Below are positions 20,370-26,958 of a stretch of 64,000 bases of DNA, in pieces. The translations under genes and the position numbers were made by a program. The stretch's first letter is position 1. The number at the start of each line of letters is the position of its first letter. Under the pieces are notes generated by a model that was not told where the DNA came from, made no database searches, and was given only the letters and a program-made list of their open reading frames with translations. The DNA is from Bacteroidales bacterium. GTDB lineage: Bacteria > Bacteroidota > Bacteroidia > Bacteroidales > UBA10428. Location of the stretch: the NCBI GenBank assembly GCA_016934395.1, contig JAFGSZ010000013.1, forward strand, positions 1 through 64,000. Reading direction: 5' to 3'.

Positions 20370-21604
20370 TATTCGTCTCTTAATGCAACAACAGGTCGTA
20401 TTTTAGCCGCTTTTCTTGAAGGCACATAACCGGCAAGAACTCCACATACTATTAATATAATAGTAGCGGCAACAGCAACCTGTATATTGATTTCGGGTTT
20501 ATAAATAAAAGGTATATTCTCAAATACCGGTGTTAAAAGTTCAAGCAGACCGATTCCAAGCACTAATCCTGTATAACCTGAAACGGCAATGATCAGTACG
20601 GATTCAAGTATAATTAATCCGACAATAGAATTAGGGGTAGCACCAATTGCTTTTCGAATACCGATTTCTTTAGTCCGTTCGTTAACTACGATCATCATAA
20701 TATTGCTAACCCCCACAACTCCGGCAATTAATGTACCTGCTCCGATAATCCAGATAAAAATTTTAATACCCATAAAAAGGCCCTGAAATTTTTTATATTC
20801 TTCAGAAGCATTCCAATGTCCAATTGCCCTGTCGTCTTCAGGATCGAATTTGTGCCTCTTGGCAATAGAACCAATAATATTTTTTTCAATACCCTTGCTT
20901 TCTTCAACTGTGGCATCGCCGGTTGTGGCAACAAAACTATGTATTCTGTTCATTCCTTTAAAAACCATCTGAGCAGCAGTAATCGGGACATATATTGTTC
21001 GCAGGCCCCTGTTTCTTATATCAAGATCGGTGTAAATACCCACAACTTTAAATGGAACTCCCTGAATTTTTATATACTTGCCCATTGGGTCTTCGTCCTT
21101 AAAAAGGGTTTCCCGCACCAGACCGCTTATCATTGCCACTTTCCGGGTTTGTTTAATGTCGATATTATTAATAAACCGGCCTTCCAGCATTTCGATTTTT
21201 TCTATTTTCTGAAAATCAGGATGGGCGCTTCTGATATCAAAGGCTCCAAATTCATTTTTATAGCTTACCTGATTATTTCCCCAGATATTGTAGCGTGCAG
21301 AAATATATTCAATGCCGTCAATATTATCGTGTGTATCCTGGTAGTCTGAATTTTGCAGACGGATATCCCTTCCCGGTTTCATACCTTTATAGGGTTTGCT
21401 TGTCTGACCGCCCCAGATATAGATTGCATTGGTGGCCGAATCACTGAATTCCCGTTCAATCCCGTTTTGAAGTCCTGTACCGGAACCGAGCAAAATGACC
21501 AGCATAAAAATTCCCCAGGCCACACTAAAGGCCGTTAAGAAAGTCCGCAGCTTATTTTTGCTGATCGTATTTAATATTTCCTGCCATTTATCAGCATCAA
21601 GCAT
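20369..21604 (-). CDS. MacB-like ABC transporter permease (first copy)
   Basis: This 411-aa permease has the same layout as its downstream neighbour: an N-terminal helix (LRTFLTAFSVAWGIFMLVIL), a periplasmic MacB-PCD domain, and three C-terminal helices around IMMIVVNERTKEIGIRKAIGA. ATG start at 21604 overlaps the ATPase gene by 8 nt. MacB-type mechanotransmission pumps expel peptides, lipoproteins or drugs from the periplasm; the cargo is unknown here. Confidence 0.88.
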   Translation of the reverse strand: MLDADKWQEILNTISKNKLRTFLTAFSVAWGIFMLVILLGSGTGLQNGIEREFSDSATNAIYIWGGQTSKPYKGMKPGRDIRLQNSDYQDTHDNIDGIEYISARYNIWGNNQVSYKNEFGAFDIRSAHPDFQKIEKIEMLEGRFINNIDIKQTRKVAMISGLVRETLFKDEDPMGKYIKIQGVPFKVVGIYTDLDIRNRGLRTIYVPITAAQMVFKGMNRIHSFVATTGDATVEESKGIEKNIIGSIAKRHKFDPEDDRAIGHWNASEEYKKFQGLFMGIKIFIWIIGAGTLIAGVVGVSNIMMIVVNERTKEIGIRKAIGATPNSIVGLIILESVLIIAVSGYTGLVLGIGLLELLTPVFENIPFIYKPEINIQVAVAATIILIVCGVLAGYVPSRKAAKIRPVVALRDE

Positions 21605-22292
21605 ATTTTTTCAGTTTTGAGGGTTTAATTTCTTTATCAATTATACCATCATTAAGATGTATGATTCGATCGGTGCGCCCTGCGATATCCGTTTCGTGGG
21701 TGACAATTACCACGGTCATACCACTTGCATTTACTTCTCTAAGAAGTTCCATAACCTCAAAGGAAGTTTGTGAATCCAGCGCTCCTGTAGGTTCATCGGC
21801 AAGAATAAGTTTAGGATTGGTAACCATTGCCCGGGCTATGGCCACACGTTGCTTTTGTCCTCCCGACAACTCGTTGGGATTATGAGTGGCCCATTCCAGC
21901 AAACCCATACGTTCCAGATATTCAAGAGCAATCTTGTTTCTTTTTTTTCTCGGAACTTTTTGATAATACAGAGGTAATGCTACATTCTCCATAGCATTTT
22001 TGAATGAGATCAGATTAAATGACTGAAAAATGAATCCTATCGTCTGGTTTCTGAAATAAGCTGCTTGTTTCTCACTCAGGTTCCGGATTAATGTGCCATT
22101 AAGTGAATACTCACCTTTATCATAAGCATCAAGAATACCGATAATATTAAGTAAGGTGGATTTTCCTGAACCGGATGATCCCATAATTGAAACCAATTCT
22201 CCCTGTTCTACAAACAAATCAATTCCTTTTAAAACATGCAGGCTGTTATTTCCTGTAACGTAAGATTTGTGTAATTGCTGAATTTGAATCAT
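21597..22292 (-). CDS. ABC transporter ATPase (MacB/LolD type)
   Basis: This 231-aa nucleotide-binding subunit has Walker A GSSGSGKST, the Q-loop FQSFNL, the signature LSGGQKQRVAIARA, Walker B LILADEPTGALDS and the H-loop VTHE. It is first in a four-gene operon (ATPase, permease, permease, adaptor), with overlaps at both inner junctions. ATG start at 22292. The 211 nt upstream (22293-22503) show no clear promoter or structure. Confidence 0.92.
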   Translation of the reverse strand: MIQIQQLHKSYVTGNNSLHVLKGIDLFVEQGELVSIMGSSGSGKSTLLNIIGILDAYDKGEYSLNGTLIRNLSEKQAAYFRNQTIGFIFQSFNLISFKNAMENVALPLYYQKVPRKKRNKIALEYLERMGLLEWATHNPNELSGGQKQRVAIARAMVTNPKLILADEPTGALDSQTSFEVMELLREVNASGMTVVIVTHETDIAGRTDRIIHLNDGIIDKEIKPSKLKKYA

Positions 22293-22503: not shown

Positions 22504-23526
22504 TTACTCAAGGTTTAAACTTTTAAAAACCTGAGGATAGTCGGCATATATTTTTATTACCTTGTAACCGCTGTTATTGAATAATCCTGAGCTAAAAAGC
22601 AGCCGGTTGTGAATATAGGCTTCACATAAATCGTTGTTTGAATTATGGTATAACAGAAATTCCGCAGTATCAATAATCGGGGCAGCGCTTAAGTCGGGAA
22701 TTTGGACCATGGTAAATTCATGTTTTTTACATCCCCCGCCATACTCCACATCAACAGACAGGCAACCATGAAGATTCATCAGCTGTTCAATTTCAAACAG
22801 ATCATTATCTTTTTGCAGATACTCTGAAGCATAATCTGCCCCAAGAATTGTTTTACACCCTGTTTCACTAATGGAATCAATACGGATATTTATTCCGGTC
22901 ATACAGGTACTATAATAATCCTGTAACTCGGTAAAATAAAAGCTTACATGCTGCCCGTTGTAAAATGTAAATTCCGGGACTACCTGGACGGGATTCAGTA
23001 TTTCACCATTCCAGGTTTCAATTAAGTACCCGCAACCATCCAGGCCTGTATAATCTTTTACAATACCTGTGTATTTTTTATAATTACATTTTTTTATAAT
23101 TACTGATGCCTTATAGTCATCGGGTACATATGTAATATTTGAATACGGATACGGTTCGAGCTTAACCAGAGTAATACTGTATCCCATAAAATAATCGGTA
23201 GTGGCAAATCCGGGATTTGTATTTAATGTTAATATCCCTGAATTTTCGCCAAGCCGCATATGAACCTGAATACCGGCATTCCCTCCCCAGATGCATGAAA
23301 CATCCAGTGGACAGCGGGAGTCTTCAACCAGTGAATCGAAAGTGAGTGTTACATTACAATCTGTAAAAGTGACCGGATTATTGTAGTCCAAAACTATAGT
23401 ATCATTTAAGAATTCCGTACAGGTCTTTAAATTGTTATCATCCTGAAAATATTCACAGGAAGTACAAATAAGTATATATATGAGTGGCAGAAAAAATCGT
23501 GTTTTCATGATTGAATTTTTTTTCAT
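22504..23526 (-). CDS. Cys-rich secreted lipoprotein, unknown function
   Basis: This 340-aa protein has a lipoprotein signal (lipobox Cys at residue 24 from ATG 23526, or 18 from the internal ATG 23508). Its first domain contains DSRCPLDVSCIWGGNA, a D-S-R-C-P-x3-C-x-W-x-G pattern that I associate with Bacteroidota surface lipoproteins. A second part has YTGIVKDYTGLDGCGYLIE, and a third has HGCLSVDVEYGGGCKKHEF. The paired cysteines suggest disulfides. It starts 3 nt after the serpin stop, so the two form one operon and may act together outside the cell. Confidence 0.75.
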   Translation of the reverse strand: MKKNSIMKTRFFLPLIYILICTSCEYFQDDNNLKTCTEFLNDTIVLDYNNPVTFTDCNVTLTFDSLVEDSRCPLDVSCIWGGNAGIQVHMRLGENSGILTLNTNPGFATTDYFMGYSITLVKLEPYPYSNITYVPDDYKASVIIKKCNYKKYTGIVKDYTGLDGCGYLIETWNGEILNPVQVVPEFTFYNGQHVSFYFTELQDYYSTCMTGINIRIDSISETGCKTILGADYASEYLQKDNDLFEIEQLMNLHGCLSVDVEYGGGCKKHEFTMVQIPDLSAAPIIDTAEFLLYHNSNNDLCEAYIHNRLLFSSGLFNNSGYKVIKIYADYPQVFKSLNLE

Positions 23527-23529
23527 TAT

Positions 23530-24762
23530 TTATAGTACAGGATCCATCACACGACCGATAAATAGTATCGCGCTGGAATTTTTCTCTTTGATCACAAATA
23601 AAAAAGGCCGGTTCACAATAAAATACGCAGGTGTTTCTCCGGAAATGCTGGTTAACGAAATTTCTACAGAAGTTACAGCTGCAGCTTCTGTGCCCTCTTC
23701 ATTAACTTCTACAAAGGATTTATGGAGAACAGTAGAAATAAAAAGCGGTTCTACAGGATTAATTTTCGAAAAATCTGCTCCCCCGGAAAACGCTATACCC
23801 ATTCCTAAATCTGAAAGATCTTCGTTCAGTTTTTTCTTATATTCAAATTTAAATTTGGGAAGTTGTACAATAACATTTTTATTGCTTAAACTTTCCGTCC
23901 AGTTTTCCCAGTTTTCAACAGTCAATTCATTAATAACATCCTGAACTGTTTTATCAGCATTGGGTAATAAAACCAACATGCTGTAATCCCCTTGTCCATA
24001 CGGGAGTTCCGCAGCGCTAAAAAGATTATTACTCAGGTAATAAAAATCTTCCTGTTGTTTCATGGAAGGCACCTGTTTAATATTGCTGTTTAAACATGTG
24101 AAATATTCATCTGTGGTATTCTCAATATTAAATTCATACTTCCATGTTCCTTTAAAATAAATTGCATTAATCAGGTACATAACAGCTTCAGGGGGAATAT
24201 TGTCGATAATTTCTTCTATTTTATCATGGGTTTTATCAGCAACCCAGTTATTAATTATATTTTTGGCATCCGAGGCGCCAAAATTCAACGATGCCACTTC
24301 GGCAGCATAATATTCCGAATTTACATCGAGAAAATTCTGTTCAACAGAAAATTCTTCTCGGTACCAGATAGAATTAGCAATTTCGAGAATTACTTTTGGA
24401 TCTACTGACAGTAAACCTTCCATCAGGCTTTTATACAAAGTATTTATCTGAGCAATTGAATAATCTTCTTTTTTGAGGGTTGTCCGCATTGCTTCTTCAG
24501 TAGTGCCATTAGCTCCGTTATAAGTCATCGCAAGCGCCATAGATATACTAACCGGTGAAATGAAAACATTTACATCTTCAGGTTCATTGCTAATAACTTC
24601 TTTAAAAAGATCTAATCCGAATTCATTATCGGATGCTATGATTCCCTGCGTACTTTTTAGTTTATCCCTGCTCTCGTTAACCGGATATACTTCAGTTTTT
24701 TCACAGGCAAAGCTTGCAGATAATAATAAAATGCTGAATATTGTTAATTTAAGTGTTTTCAT
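23530..24762 (-). CDS. Serpin-family protease inhibitor, surface lipoprotein
   Basis: The 410-aa protein has a lipoprotein signal (lipobox SASFAC, Cys20) followed by a full serpin fold. FISPVSISMALAMTYNGANG and the C-terminal NRPFLFVI motifs are clear. The reactive-loop hinge EEGTEAAAVTS has the small residues needed for loop insertion, so it should be inhibitory. Aligning the hinge (P17-P8) to alpha-1-antitrypsin puts P1-P1' at T371-S372. A small P1 suggests elastase-like targets (inference). It is divergent from an ECF sigma gene and heads a two-gene operon. Confidence 0.92.
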   Translation of the reverse strand: MKTLKLTIFSILLLSASFACEKTEVYPVNESRDKLKSTQGIIASDNEFGLDLFKEVISNEPEDVNVFISPVSISMALAMTYNGANGTTEEAMRTTLKKEDYSIAQINTLYKSLMEGLLSVDPKVILEIANSIWYREEFSVEQNFLDVNSEYYAAEVASLNFGASDAKNIINNWVADKTHDKIEEIIDNIPPEAVMYLINAIYFKGTWKYEFNIENTTDEYFTCLNSNIKQVPSMKQQEDFYYLSNNLFSAAELPYGQGDYSMLVLLPNADKTVQDVINELTVENWENWTESLSNKNVIVQLPKFKFEYKKKLNEDLSDLGMGIAFSGGADFSKINPVEPLFISTVLHKSFVEVNEEGTEAAAVTSVEISLTSISGETPAYFIVNRPFLFVIKEKNSSAILFIGRVMDPVL

Positions 24763-24796: not shown

Positions 24797-24825
24797 GATG
24801 TACCTGGCAAAAATTTGGTTGCGTT
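24797..24825 (-). promoter_or_regulatory. Putative ECF-sigma promoter for the serpin operon
   Basis: The minus strand reads AACGCAACC (24825-24817), 16 nt, then CATC (24800-24797). ECF promoters commonly carry an AAC core in the -35 element. The start point would be near 24790, giving a leader of about 28 nt before ATG 24762. The same pattern with the same spacing faces the sigma gene on the other strand. Confidence 0.55.
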
Positions 24826-24852
24826 GTTTGTATTTTATTCTTCATATATAGT

Positions 24853-24881
24853 AACGCAACCCTTTAAGCAGCTATTGCATC
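24853..24881 (+). promoter_or_regulatory. Putative ECF-sigma promoter for the sigma operon
   Basis: The plus strand reads AACGCAACC (24853-24861), 16 nt, then CATC (24878-24881). The two 9-nt -35-like boxes form a perfect inverted repeat separated by 27 nt. Transcription would begin near 24890, about 85 nt before the sigma start codon. Two TAATTTTG boxes (24905-24912, 24946-24953) could add a housekeeping start. Confidence 0.55.
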
Positions 24882-24945: not shown

Positions 24946-24953
24946 TAATTTTG
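24946..24953 (+). promoter_or_regulatory. Bacteroidota -7 element upstream of the ECF sigma gene
   Basis: TAATTTTG matches TAnnTTTG exactly and lies about 22 nt before the TTG start. A second identical box is at 24905-24912. No correctly spaced -33 TTTG was found for either, so these could be chance matches in AT-rich DNA. Confidence 0.35.
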
Positions 24954-24974: not shown

Positions 24975-25532
24975 TTGGTTGATAAGTTACCATATATAAT
25001 TAAAGGGTGTCAGCAGAATGATCCGGGCGCTCAACGCGAACTATACGAATATTTTAAAGCAAAAATGTTCGGGGTATGTTTGCGGTATTCAAATAATTAT
25101 GATGACGCCCAGGATGTGATGCAGGATGGCTTTTTAAAGGTGTTTCAAAAAATAGGACAATTTGAATTTAAAGGTGCATTTGAAGGATGGGTAAGAAGAA
25201 TTATGATTAACACTGCGCTTGAGAAATACAGGAACAAGTACCAGGTTATTAATCTAAGCGACAACCTGAAAAATGAGACGGATTCATTAAAGGTTGAAGA
25301 TATTACCAGTAGTTTATCCGCACAGGAATTACTTGGTTTTGTTCAGGAACTGTCGCCTAAATACAGGATGGTTTTTAACCTGTATGCTATTGAGGGTTAT
25401 CAGCATAAGGATATTGCAAAAATGCTGAACATTTCAGAAGGCACCTCAAAATCGAATTTATCAAGAGCTCGTGCAATTTTGCAGGAGAAAGTAAAACGAT
25501 ATTTTAACCTTTCTGTAAAGGTAGGAGAATAA
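24975..25532 (+). CDS. ECF-type RNA polymerase sigma factor
   Basis: The 185-aa sigma-70 family protein has region 2 (about residues 12-80, with the DAQDVMQDGFLKVFQKI core-binding and -10 segment) and region 4 (about 115-170, with YRMVFNLYAIEGYQHKDIAKML and the helix-turn-helix GTSKSNLSRAR). The start is TTG 24975. An in-frame stop at 24957 and the lack of an upstream ATG leave no other good choice, since the next ATG would remove part of region 2. The partner gene with an N-terminal membrane anchor starts 4 nt downstream. Confidence 0.93.
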   Translation: MVDKLPYIIKGCQQNDPGAQRELYEYFKAKMFGVCLRYSNNYDDAQDVMQDGFLKVFQKIGQFEFKGAFEGWVRRIMINTALEKYRNKYQVINLSDNLKNETDSLKVEDITSSLSAQELLGFVQELSPKYRMVFNLYAIEGYQHKDIAKMLNISEGTSKSNLSRARAILQEKVKRYFNLSVKVGE

Positions 25533-25536
25533 TAAG

Positions 25537-26958
25537 ATGCTTAGGAATAACGAAAATATCGACGAAGTATTCAGGGATAAACTCTGGAATATCCAGGAAG
25601 ATCCTTCGGATGCCGTATGGAAAAATATTTCCGGAAAGCTGGGACATAATAAGAAAAACAGAGTGTTGTTTATTTTCAGCAGAATTGCCGCCGGCATAGC
25701 TTTACTGGCAACCCTGGGACTGAGTTATTATTTTATAAGCAGACCAAATCAGGCAGATTTACAAAATCAACTTTCTGTAAAAAATACAGATACTGAAAAA
25801 ATAACAAAGGCTCCGGAAAATAAAGTAAAATCAATAATTCAACCCGTAAATAAAAAACAAGGACCAGAAATACAGTTATCAGGCAATGAAGTTGCACCTA
25901 TAAAGAATAAACATATAATACAATCCGCTGCAGATAAAAATAAACTACCAGTAAATACAGAAAACAAAAAGCAGCTTGCAGAAAATACTGAACTTATCAC
26001 CCTAACAAATTCTGAAATTCCGTGTACAACCATACCTGTTTCAAACAATAATAATGCAGAAGGAATTCTGGATGAAAAACAGCCAATATTAACAGTATTC
26101 CCGACCCTTGCTGAAGAAAATATTGAATTACCGGAAATGTATTCAGCCCCCGCAGATTATTTTGCAAGCGTGTATACAGACCCAAAACCATCCCGGTCCA
26201 ATGAATGGATTATCGGCAGCCAGTTAGCTTCCATGTCAGTTTTTAATATCTCATCCGATAGAGAGATGACAAGTAATTTGTCTGCATCAGCAACAAATGT
26301 GAGCCAGGAAATTATGATGGCTTATTCAGGAGGAATTAACATTAATGTTTCGAATTCCGATCGTTTATCATTTCAATCAGGACTCTATTATACCCGGTAT
26401 GGAGAAACTGTAAACAACCTAAGCCTGGGTGAGTTTAACCGGCAAACCTTCTCGCTGGATGTTTTATCTAATGCCTATTCTTCAAATTTTATTGCGAACA
26501 ATTCAGATCTTTATAATCAGCTCATCAGTACAAATTCGGCATATTTTTCAGGTCCGGATAATGCTGTTATCACCGAAACAAATGGTGAATCAATAACCGG
26601 AAATATAACGCAATTTTTTGAGTATCTCGAAGTACCGTTTATTATTAAATACAAAATGATCGATCAGAAACTTGATGTACTGGTGCAGGGAGGTTTTAGC
26701 GCCGGGATCCTGGTGGGCAATAACGCCACGCTGCAGGTTGATGAAAAAAATTATCCATTGGTAACTGATAATACGCTTGACAATATCAGTTATATGAGTG
26801 TTCTTGGTTTTGGGTTTGAATATCCTTTAGGCGCTCATTTTCACATGAACCTTGAACCGGTTTTCAGATACAGTTTAAGTGAGGCAACAAGCCGCTCACT
26901 GATTAGCAATTATCCTTACCGTTTTGGTATATTCACAGGATTAAGCTATAAATTTTAA
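25537..26958 (+). CDS. Membrane-anchored putative anti-sigma/outer-membrane barrel protein
   Basis: The 473-aa protein is built in three parts. A cytoplasmic N terminus of about 45 residues (DEVFRDKLWNIQEDPSDAVWKNI) is followed by a transmembrane helix (about 48-65). Next comes a long polar linker, and then a C-terminal domain (from about 225) like PorT-type outer-membrane barrels, ending in GLSYKF. Its place directly after an ECF sigma gene, with 4 nt spacing, suggests that the cytoplasmic part holds the sigma factor. That a single chain would span both membranes is an inference. Confidence 0.75.
   Translation: MLRNNENIDEVFRDKLWNIQEDPSDAVWKNISGKLGHNKKNRVLFIFSRIAAGIALLATLGLSYYFISRPNQADLQNQLSVKNTDTEKITKAPENKVKSIIQPVNKKQGPEIQLSGNEVAPIKNKHIIQSAADKNKLPVNTENKKQLAENTELITLTNSEIPCTTIPVSNNNNAEGILDEKQPILTVFPTLAEENIELPEMYSAPADYFASVYTDPKPSRSNEWIIGSQLASMSVFNISSDREMTSNLSASATNVSQEIMMAYSGGININVSNSDRLSFQSGLYYTRYGETVNNLSLGEFNRQTFSLDVLSNAYSSNFIANNSDLYNQLISTNSAYFSGPDNAVITETNGESITGNITQFFEYLEVPFIIKYKMIDQKLDVLVQGGFSAGILVGNNATLQVDEKNYPLVTDNTLDNISYMSVLGFGFEYPLGAHFHMNLEPVFRYSLSEATSRSLISNYPYRFGIFTGLSYKF

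What the first reader, a model, noticed from the sequence alone, without database searches (positions are those of the whole stretch)
24797..24881. Matched divergent ECF-type promoters between a serpin and an ECF sigma gene
The same pattern, AACGCAACC-N16-CATC, occurs once on each strand with identical spacing, and each copy points at one of two divergent genes: the serpin operon (minus) and the ECF sigma operon (plus). The 9-nt boxes form a perfect inverted repeat. An AAC core in the -35 is common in ECF promoters (established knowledge). A search by eye found no second AACGCAACC in the window. I infer that the sigma factor drives itself and a secreted protease inhibitor, which would be an envelope response to foreign proteases.
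Basis: partly seen in the sequence, partly recalled or inferred. Interest (0 to 1): 0.7.

Follow-up and report, generated by a model that had tools for sequence, protein, structure and literature searches.

The report
Sigma-factor promoters driving surface-protein regulon
Two matching switch sequences between a protease-inhibitor gene and a stress-response regulator gene are real and conserved in many related bacteria, where the same switch precedes dozens of genes for secreted and surface proteins, so the regulator probably controls itself, the inhibitor and a larger envelope-protein programme.

Summary
AACGCAACC-N16-CATC occurs once per strand at the stated places, and these are the only two copies in the 4.5 Mb genome.

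Comparative evidence makes both copies convincing ECF promoters. The element precedes the sigma gene in 25 of 30 orthologous loci. It precedes 20 of 22 testable serpins in the family, 14 of which are not next to the sigma gene. Across 23 genomes the N16 element is about 5.5 times commoner than wrong-spacing controls, mostly intergenic, and usually followed by a lipoprotein or secreted-protein gene. Two genomes without the sigma ortholog have no intergenic copy.

The co-transcribed partner is a probable anti-sigma factor: cytosolic domain, one inner-membrane helix, disordered tether, C-terminal outer-membrane barrel. That is the Dma/Reo architecture known with ECF21 sigma factors of Bacteroides.

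Self- and serpin-regulation is well supported by inference. A response specific to foreign proteases is not: the regulon is wide and the signal unknown. I file this as a new member of a known kind, with a newly read promoter consensus and a recurrent serpin partner.

The parts
24797..24825 (-). ECF-type promoter facing the serpin: -35 AACGCAACC (24817-24825), 16-nt spacer, -10 CATC (24797-24800); 34 nt from the serpin ATG
   Evidence: Exact match; the same element precedes 20 of 22 testable serpins of the family
24853..24881 (+). ECF-type promoter facing the sigma gene: -35 AACGCAACC (24853-24861), 16-nt spacer, -10 CATC (24878-24881); 93 nt from the TTG start
   Evidence: Exact match; conserved in 25 of 30 orthologous loci, ACGCAAC and ATC invariant in those 25
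24946..24953 (+). TAATTTTG, match to the Bacteroidota primary-sigma -7 consensus TAnnTTTG; probable second, basal promoter of the sigma gene
   Evidence: Present in 18 of 20 family orthologs in this position, shuffles 0.5 on average; consensus from PMC7366714
24975..25532 (+). ECF sigma factor gene, conserved TTG start
   Evidence: Pfam Sigma70_r2 and Sigma70_r4_2; orthologs in most family genomes
25537..26958 (+). [quoted passage not shown]
   Evidence: Pfam OMP_b-brl_2; alignment A3; AlphaFold model; Foldseek matches to OmpA, OmpW, OmpX
23530..24762 (-). Serpin lipoprotein with an inhibitory-type hinge (EEGTEAAAVTSVEI)
   Evidence: Pfam Serpin E 1.4e-117; hinge and lipobox read from the sequence
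22504..23526 (-). Second lipoprotein gene, 3 nt behind the serpin and probably in its operon
   Evidence: ORF and lipobox; no Pfam or NCBIfam family
21597..22292 (-). ABC transporter ATPase; neighbour, not shown to be in the regulon. In eight relatives without an adjacent serpin it lies within 1.5 kb of the sigma gene on the same side
   Evidence: tblastn

Best explanation
The two elements are promoters of one ECF sigma factor, the product of 24975-25532. [quoted passage not shown] Envelope or outer-membrane disturbance releases the sigma factor. It then recognises (A)ACGCAACC(W)TT...CATC(T) with a 16-nt (sometimes 15-nt) spacer, amplifies its own operon, and switches on the divergent serpin-lipoprotein unit together with scattered genes for lipoproteins and secreted proteins. 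A housekeeping TAnnTTTG promoter closer to the sigma gene keeps a basal supply. Shown by sequence: the elements, their conservation and spacing, their association with this sigma gene, the nature of the downstream genes, and the predicted anti-sigma architecture. Inferred: transcription from these sites by this sigma factor, sigma/anti-sigma binding, the signal, and protease inhibition as an output.
For: Element conserved upstream of the sigma gene in 25 of 30 loci and in 42 of 80 named Bacteroidota relatives with at most one mismatch. 20 of 22 testable family serpins carry it, 14 of them away from the sigma gene. 129 N16 hits against about 23.5 per wrong spacing; 93 of 113 outside long ORFs against 5 of 40 controls, and 71 of 113 followed by a lipoprotein or secreted ORF against 1 of 40 (Fisher p 3e-15 and 1.5e-12). 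G002 and G018, without a close sigma ortholog, have a single hit each, inside a long ORF. Divergent serpin-sigma pairs recur in at least eight other genera of the order. Anti-sigma architecture equals that published for Dma and Reo.
Against: No transcript start, binding or expression data. The sigma factor-to-motif link is by co-occurrence; the genome has 22 matches to this sigma protein at E 1e-3, and a paralog could read some sites. Two family serpins do not show the element (one has a sister copy that does, one is near a contig end), and at order level most serpins lack a strict match (6 of 29). G013 has sites but no ortholog was found (69% complete genome).
Confidence: 0.85

Rival explanations
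1. The boxes form an operator: a dimeric transcription factor binds the GGTTGCGTT/AACGCAACC inverted repeat and controls both genes, and the boxes are not promoter elements.
For: The two 9-mers are a perfect inverted repeat; divergent pairs with two elements also occur at G009:C11 and G006:C39.
Against: Most sites are single and oriented towards one gene; the CATC part at a spacing of 15-16 is conserved as strongly as the box; the distance between the two boxes varies widely between relatives; CATC usually lies 15-45 nt before the ATG.
Confidence: 0.05
2. The element is an ECF promoter, but it is read mainly by another ECF paralog; the adjacent sigma gene is just one more target.
For: 22 matches to the sigma protein in this genome at E 1e-3; some order genomes have the element in front of serpins with only a distant relative of this sigma factor.
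Against: The element tracks this ortholog: almost invariant upstream of it across the phylum and missing between genes where the ortholog is missing. Self-regulation is the usual pattern for ECF operons (established knowledge).
Confidence: 0.08
3. Chance: two similar 9-mers in an AT-rich gap.
For: One-mismatch copies of the 9-mer are no more common in the window than in shuffles.
Against: All comparative evidence.
Confidence: 0.01
4. Physiological rival within the main reading: the system is a dedicated defence against foreign proteases, and not a general outer-membrane stress response.
For: Serpins are the most recurrent divergent partner, with an inhibitory-type hinge; VIT-domain proteins are among the targets.
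Against: Most targets are varied lipoproteins and secreted proteins with no link to proteases; many genomes have the system without a serpin beside it; related systems answer to oxygen and antibacterial toxins.
Confidence: 0.15

Closest known systems
[quoted passage not shown] PMC13088901)
   Same: Sigma gene followed by an anti-sigma gene with sigma-binding domain, one inner-membrane helix, long disordered tether and C-terminal barrel; lipoprotein genes among the outputs
   Different: Published outputs include NigD1 and vesiculation; PF12667 (NigD) is not found in this genome. No serpin is mentioned in the passages read. Promoter sequence not given there
EcfO/Reo of Bacteroides fragilis and Phocaeicola vulgatus (PMC9308784, PMC13114119)
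   Same: Same sigma/anti-sigma architecture, strong induction of the sigma gene itself on stress, surface lipoproteins as outputs
   Different: Known outputs are NigD proteins and genes affecting O-antigen length. The EcfO recognition sequence is published for B. fragilis but the paper is not held, so it could not be compared. NigD genes in several order genomes mostly lack the element found here
Serpin control by two-component system in Bifidobacterium breve (from memory)
   Same: A bacterial serpin under control of an envelope-signal system
   Different: Gram-positive, two-component system, not an ECF sigma factor; recalled, not tested
Miropin, serpin of Tannerella forsythia (from memory)
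   Same: Bacteroidales serpin lipoprotein with an inhibitory reactive loop
   Different: No link to an ECF promoter known to me; not tested here

Membership tests
ECF sigma factors (group IV) | Regions 2 and 4 of sigma-70 only, short protein | tested here: met
   185 aa, PF04542 and PF08281 only, TIGR02937 above cut-off
Das/Dma and EcfO/Reo systems (ECF21 with dual membrane-spanning anti-sigma) | Anti-sigma gene directly beside the sigma gene with N-terminal cytosolic part, one inner-membrane helix, disordered tether, C-terminal barrel | tested here: met
   Gene order, alignment with near-invariant terminal Phe, model: helices 5-34, helix 40-68, low confidence 78-215, strands 223-472; PDB matches to outer-membrane barrels
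Das/Dma and EcfO/Reo systems (ECF21 with dual membrane-spanning anti-sigma) | Sigma factor falls in group ECF21 | not testable with these tools
   The ECF classification models are not among the libraries; the paper is not held
Das/Dma and EcfO/Reo systems (ECF21 with dual membrane-spanning anti-sigma) | Self-activation of the operon | tested here: inconclusive
   Conserved promoter-like element upstream of the sigma gene predicts it; no expression data
Das/Dma and EcfO/Reo systems (ECF21 with dual membrane-spanning anti-sigma) | Regulon contains surface lipoproteins | tested here: met
   71 of 113 sites followed by lipoprotein or secreted ORFs, 1 of 40 in controls; prediction from sequence only
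Das/Dma and EcfO/Reo systems (ECF21 with dual membrane-spanning anti-sigma) | NigD proteins in the regulon (reported for known members; not treated here as strictly defining) | tested here: not met
   PF12667 not found in this genome; element before one of 19 NigD-type genes exactly, L304
Inhibitory serpins | Full serpin domain with hinge of small residues in the reactive loop | tested here: met
   PF00079 positions 2-370 of 370; EEGTEAAAVT hinge
Inhibitory serpins | Covalent inhibition of a protease | not testable with these tools
   Needs an assay

The most novel reading that the evidence does not exclude
A trans-envelope alarm in which the outer-membrane barrel and long periplasmic tether of the anti-sigma factor sense attack on the cell surface, proteolysis included, and the output is a coat of surface lipoproteins with protease inhibitors (serpins, perhaps VIT- and Kazal-like proteins): a bacterial counterpart of an acute-phase response.
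Probability: 0.12. Interest if true: 0.8.

Novelty: new member of a known kind. Interest (0 to 1): 0.52.

Why it matters
What Dma/Reo-type sigma systems do is an open question in Bacteroidota; only a few gut species have been studied and many of their outputs are lipoproteins of unknown function. A sharp promoter consensus that can be read across the phylum turns regulon discovery into a sequence search. The recurrent divergent serpin gives one output with a testable biochemical activity.

Tried and rejected
Chance: rejected by conservation and spacing controls. Operator palindrome: disfavoured because other sites are mostly single and oriented. NigD as a shared target: PF12667 is absent here, and the element lies before only one of 19 NigD-type genes exactly (L304), with two one-mismatch matches, one of which (L308) falls inside the reading frame. 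My first signal-peptide classifier was too strict and was replaced. Order-wide exact-motif counts are noisy, because some genomes give as many hits in the reversed control, so only the family-level count is used. The EcfO paper, the Dma1 paper and the ECF classification paper are not held. The upstream check of the L229 and L232 serpins was confounded by a too-early ATG; read by eye, L232 has CGCAACC-N16-CGTC. A literature search for serpins with sigma factors in Bacteroidetes found nothing.

Full report
OBSERVATION. The window holds AACGCAACC-N16-CATC once on each strand, at 24797-24825 (minus) and 24853-24881 (plus). No third exact 9-mer exists in the window, and the 29-nt pattern occurs only twice in the 4.53 Mb genome, at these places. 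The minus copy faces a serpin lipoprotein (23530-24762) with a second lipoprotein gene 3 nt behind it. The plus copy faces an ECF sigma gene (24975-25532), followed 4 nt later by a gene for a 473-aa protein with an outer-membrane barrel domain.

CONSERVATION AT THE SIGMA GENE. Orthologs of the sigma factor were found in 60 relatives and the best 30 loci read, the window's own included. In 25 of the 30 loci the element lies about 100-125 nt upstream of the start of the match. Spacing is 16 in 22 and 15 in 3. The 11 core positions are perfect in 23 and have one mismatch in 2, and ACGCAAC and ATC are invariant in these 25. The consensus extends to (A)ACGCAACC(W)TT...CATC(T). The five loci not counted are L025, L028, L029 (a near match 223 nt upstream), L030 and L032; all belong to the more distant set. 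Among 80 named relatives from the whole phylum, 28 have an exact and 14 a one-mismatch element within 400 nt upstream, including Mucilaginibacter, Desertivirga, Arcticibacter and one Hymenobacter.

A SECOND PROMOTER. In 18 of 20 family loci a TAnnTTTG sequence lies between the ECF element and the start codon, where shuffles give 0.5 on average. This is the -7 consensus of the Bacteroidota primary sigma factor (PMC7366714). In the window it is at 24946-24953. The likely arrangement is a basal housekeeping promoter plus an autoregulatory ECF promoter. The start codon is TTG in nearly all orthologs.

SERPINS. The 23 genomes of the family contain 25 serpin matches. Of 22 with readable upstream DNA, 20 have the element with at most one mismatch, nearly all about 165-200 nt before the serpin domain, and 14 of these 20 are not next to the sigma gene. 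So the element belongs to serpins as such, not to this intergenic region alone. The exceptions are one serpin in G021, whose other copy has the element, and one in G003 near a contig end. In G004 the adjacent serpin is a 5'-truncated remnant without the element. In eight relatives with no serpin next to the sigma gene, the ABC transporter ATPase that follows the serpin unit in the window lies within 1.5 kb of it instead. Across 119 genomes of the order the divergent serpin-sigma pair recurs in G028, G029, G035, G085, G093, G110, G118 and G137. At order level a strict element (at most one mismatch) precedes 6 of 29 serpins read. Counting weaker elements at the expected distance, serpins carry it more often where a close sigma ortholog is present (9 of 13 against 3 of 16, Fisher p 0.0095). 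The weaker elements and the ortholog threshold were chosen after seeing the data, so this is supporting evidence only.

REGULON. CGCAACC-N16-CATC has 129 hits in the 23 family genomes, against 10 for the reversed pattern and 141 over six wrong spacings, about 23.5 each. Of 113 distinct N16 hits fetched and read, 93 are outside long ORFs and 71 are followed by an ORF with a lipoprotein or secretion signal. Of 40 wrong-spacing hits, 5 are outside long ORFs and 1 is followed by such an ORF (Fisher p 3e-15 and 1.5e-12). The signal classification is a simple rule of my own, not a trained predictor. CATC often ends 15-45 nt before the ATG, as a promoter with a short leader would. Divergent pairs with two elements also occur elsewhere, for instance at G009:C11 and G006:C39. 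The targets are varied: VIT/VWA proteins, PKD, CBM9, DUF3160, LVIVD, secretion-tail proteins and many without a family, besides the serpins. In the window's own genome a slightly looser pattern gives 13 sites; besides the serpin and sigma genes, five precede lipoprotein or secreted genes, one of which looks like an FKBP-type lipoprotein by eye. Genomes G002 (97% complete) and G018 (87%) have no close sigma ortholog (best E about 4e-32 and 7e-32) and each has a single hit, inside a long ORF. This is a natural-loss test with the expected result. G013 is an apparent exception, with sites but no ortholog found; it is only 69% complete.

PARTNER. The protein after the sigma factor has a conserved N-terminal motif (NID.LFR..L...E..PP..VW), a hydrophobic helix, a variable tether and a barrel ending in a near-invariant Phe. 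AlphaFold gives helices 5-34, a long helix 40-68, a low-confidence stretch 78-215, and strands 223-472 with high confidence over most of the barrel. The best PDB matches are outer-membrane barrels such as OmpA, OmpW and OmpX. This is the architecture described for Dma1 and Dma2 (PMC13088901) and for the Reo-type anti-sigma factor (PMC9308784, PMC13114119), which pair with ECF21 or EcfO sigma factors. In P. vulgatus, loss of the anti-sigma gene switches on lipoproteins such as NigD; triggers reported are oxygen and antibacterial toxins, and outer-membrane stress is the proposed signal.

WHAT IT WORKS LIKE, AND MEMBERSHIP. It works like a Das/Dma or EcfO/Reo system: architecture, gene order, predicted self-regulation and lipoprotein targets fit. 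Formal ECF21 assignment could not be tested, NigD is absent from this genome, and NigD genes in other order members mostly lack the element. I therefore call it a new member of that kind with its own target set.

WHAT IS SHOWN AND WHAT IS INFERRED. Shown: the elements, their conservation and spacing, target classes, co-occurrence and loss, and predicted architecture. Inferred: transcription from the elements by this sigma factor, inhibition by the anti-sigma factor, the signal, and protease inhibition. The foreign-protease purpose is one possibility among several.

Noticed in passing
24975-24977: The sigma gene starts with TTG in nearly all orthologs across the order, an unusual start codon to be conserved; it may keep basal translation low.
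   Followed up: partly
L294, L295, L298, L301 (upstream of NigD genes): Four NigD genes of other order genomes share a different upstream pattern, roughly ATGCAnnATT followed by CC, which may be the promoter of a related but distinct ECF sigma factor.
   Followed up: no
L114:342-557: A 72-aa lipoprotein behind an exact element has a cysteine pattern (CPGVTGCDGKTYCNE) that resembles Kazal-type protease inhibitors by eye; not confirmed by a family search.
   Followed up: partly
L089, L096, L149: Targets in three genomes are large secreted proteins with a shared N-terminal stretch (SPYFFV); VIT (inter-alpha-trypsin inhibitor heavy-chain type) domains occur in three of the scanned targets and L089 matches the marine sortase-target model below its cut-off.
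   Followed up: partly
L005 (G004:C61): The serpin next to the sigma gene is a remnant lacking the N-terminal half and the promoter element.
   Followed up: yes
L249, L258, L268 and other flavobacterial loci: Flavobacterial relatives keep the barrel-type anti-sigma gene but lack the GCAACC element upstream of the sigma gene, so promoter recognition may have shifted there.
   Followed up: no
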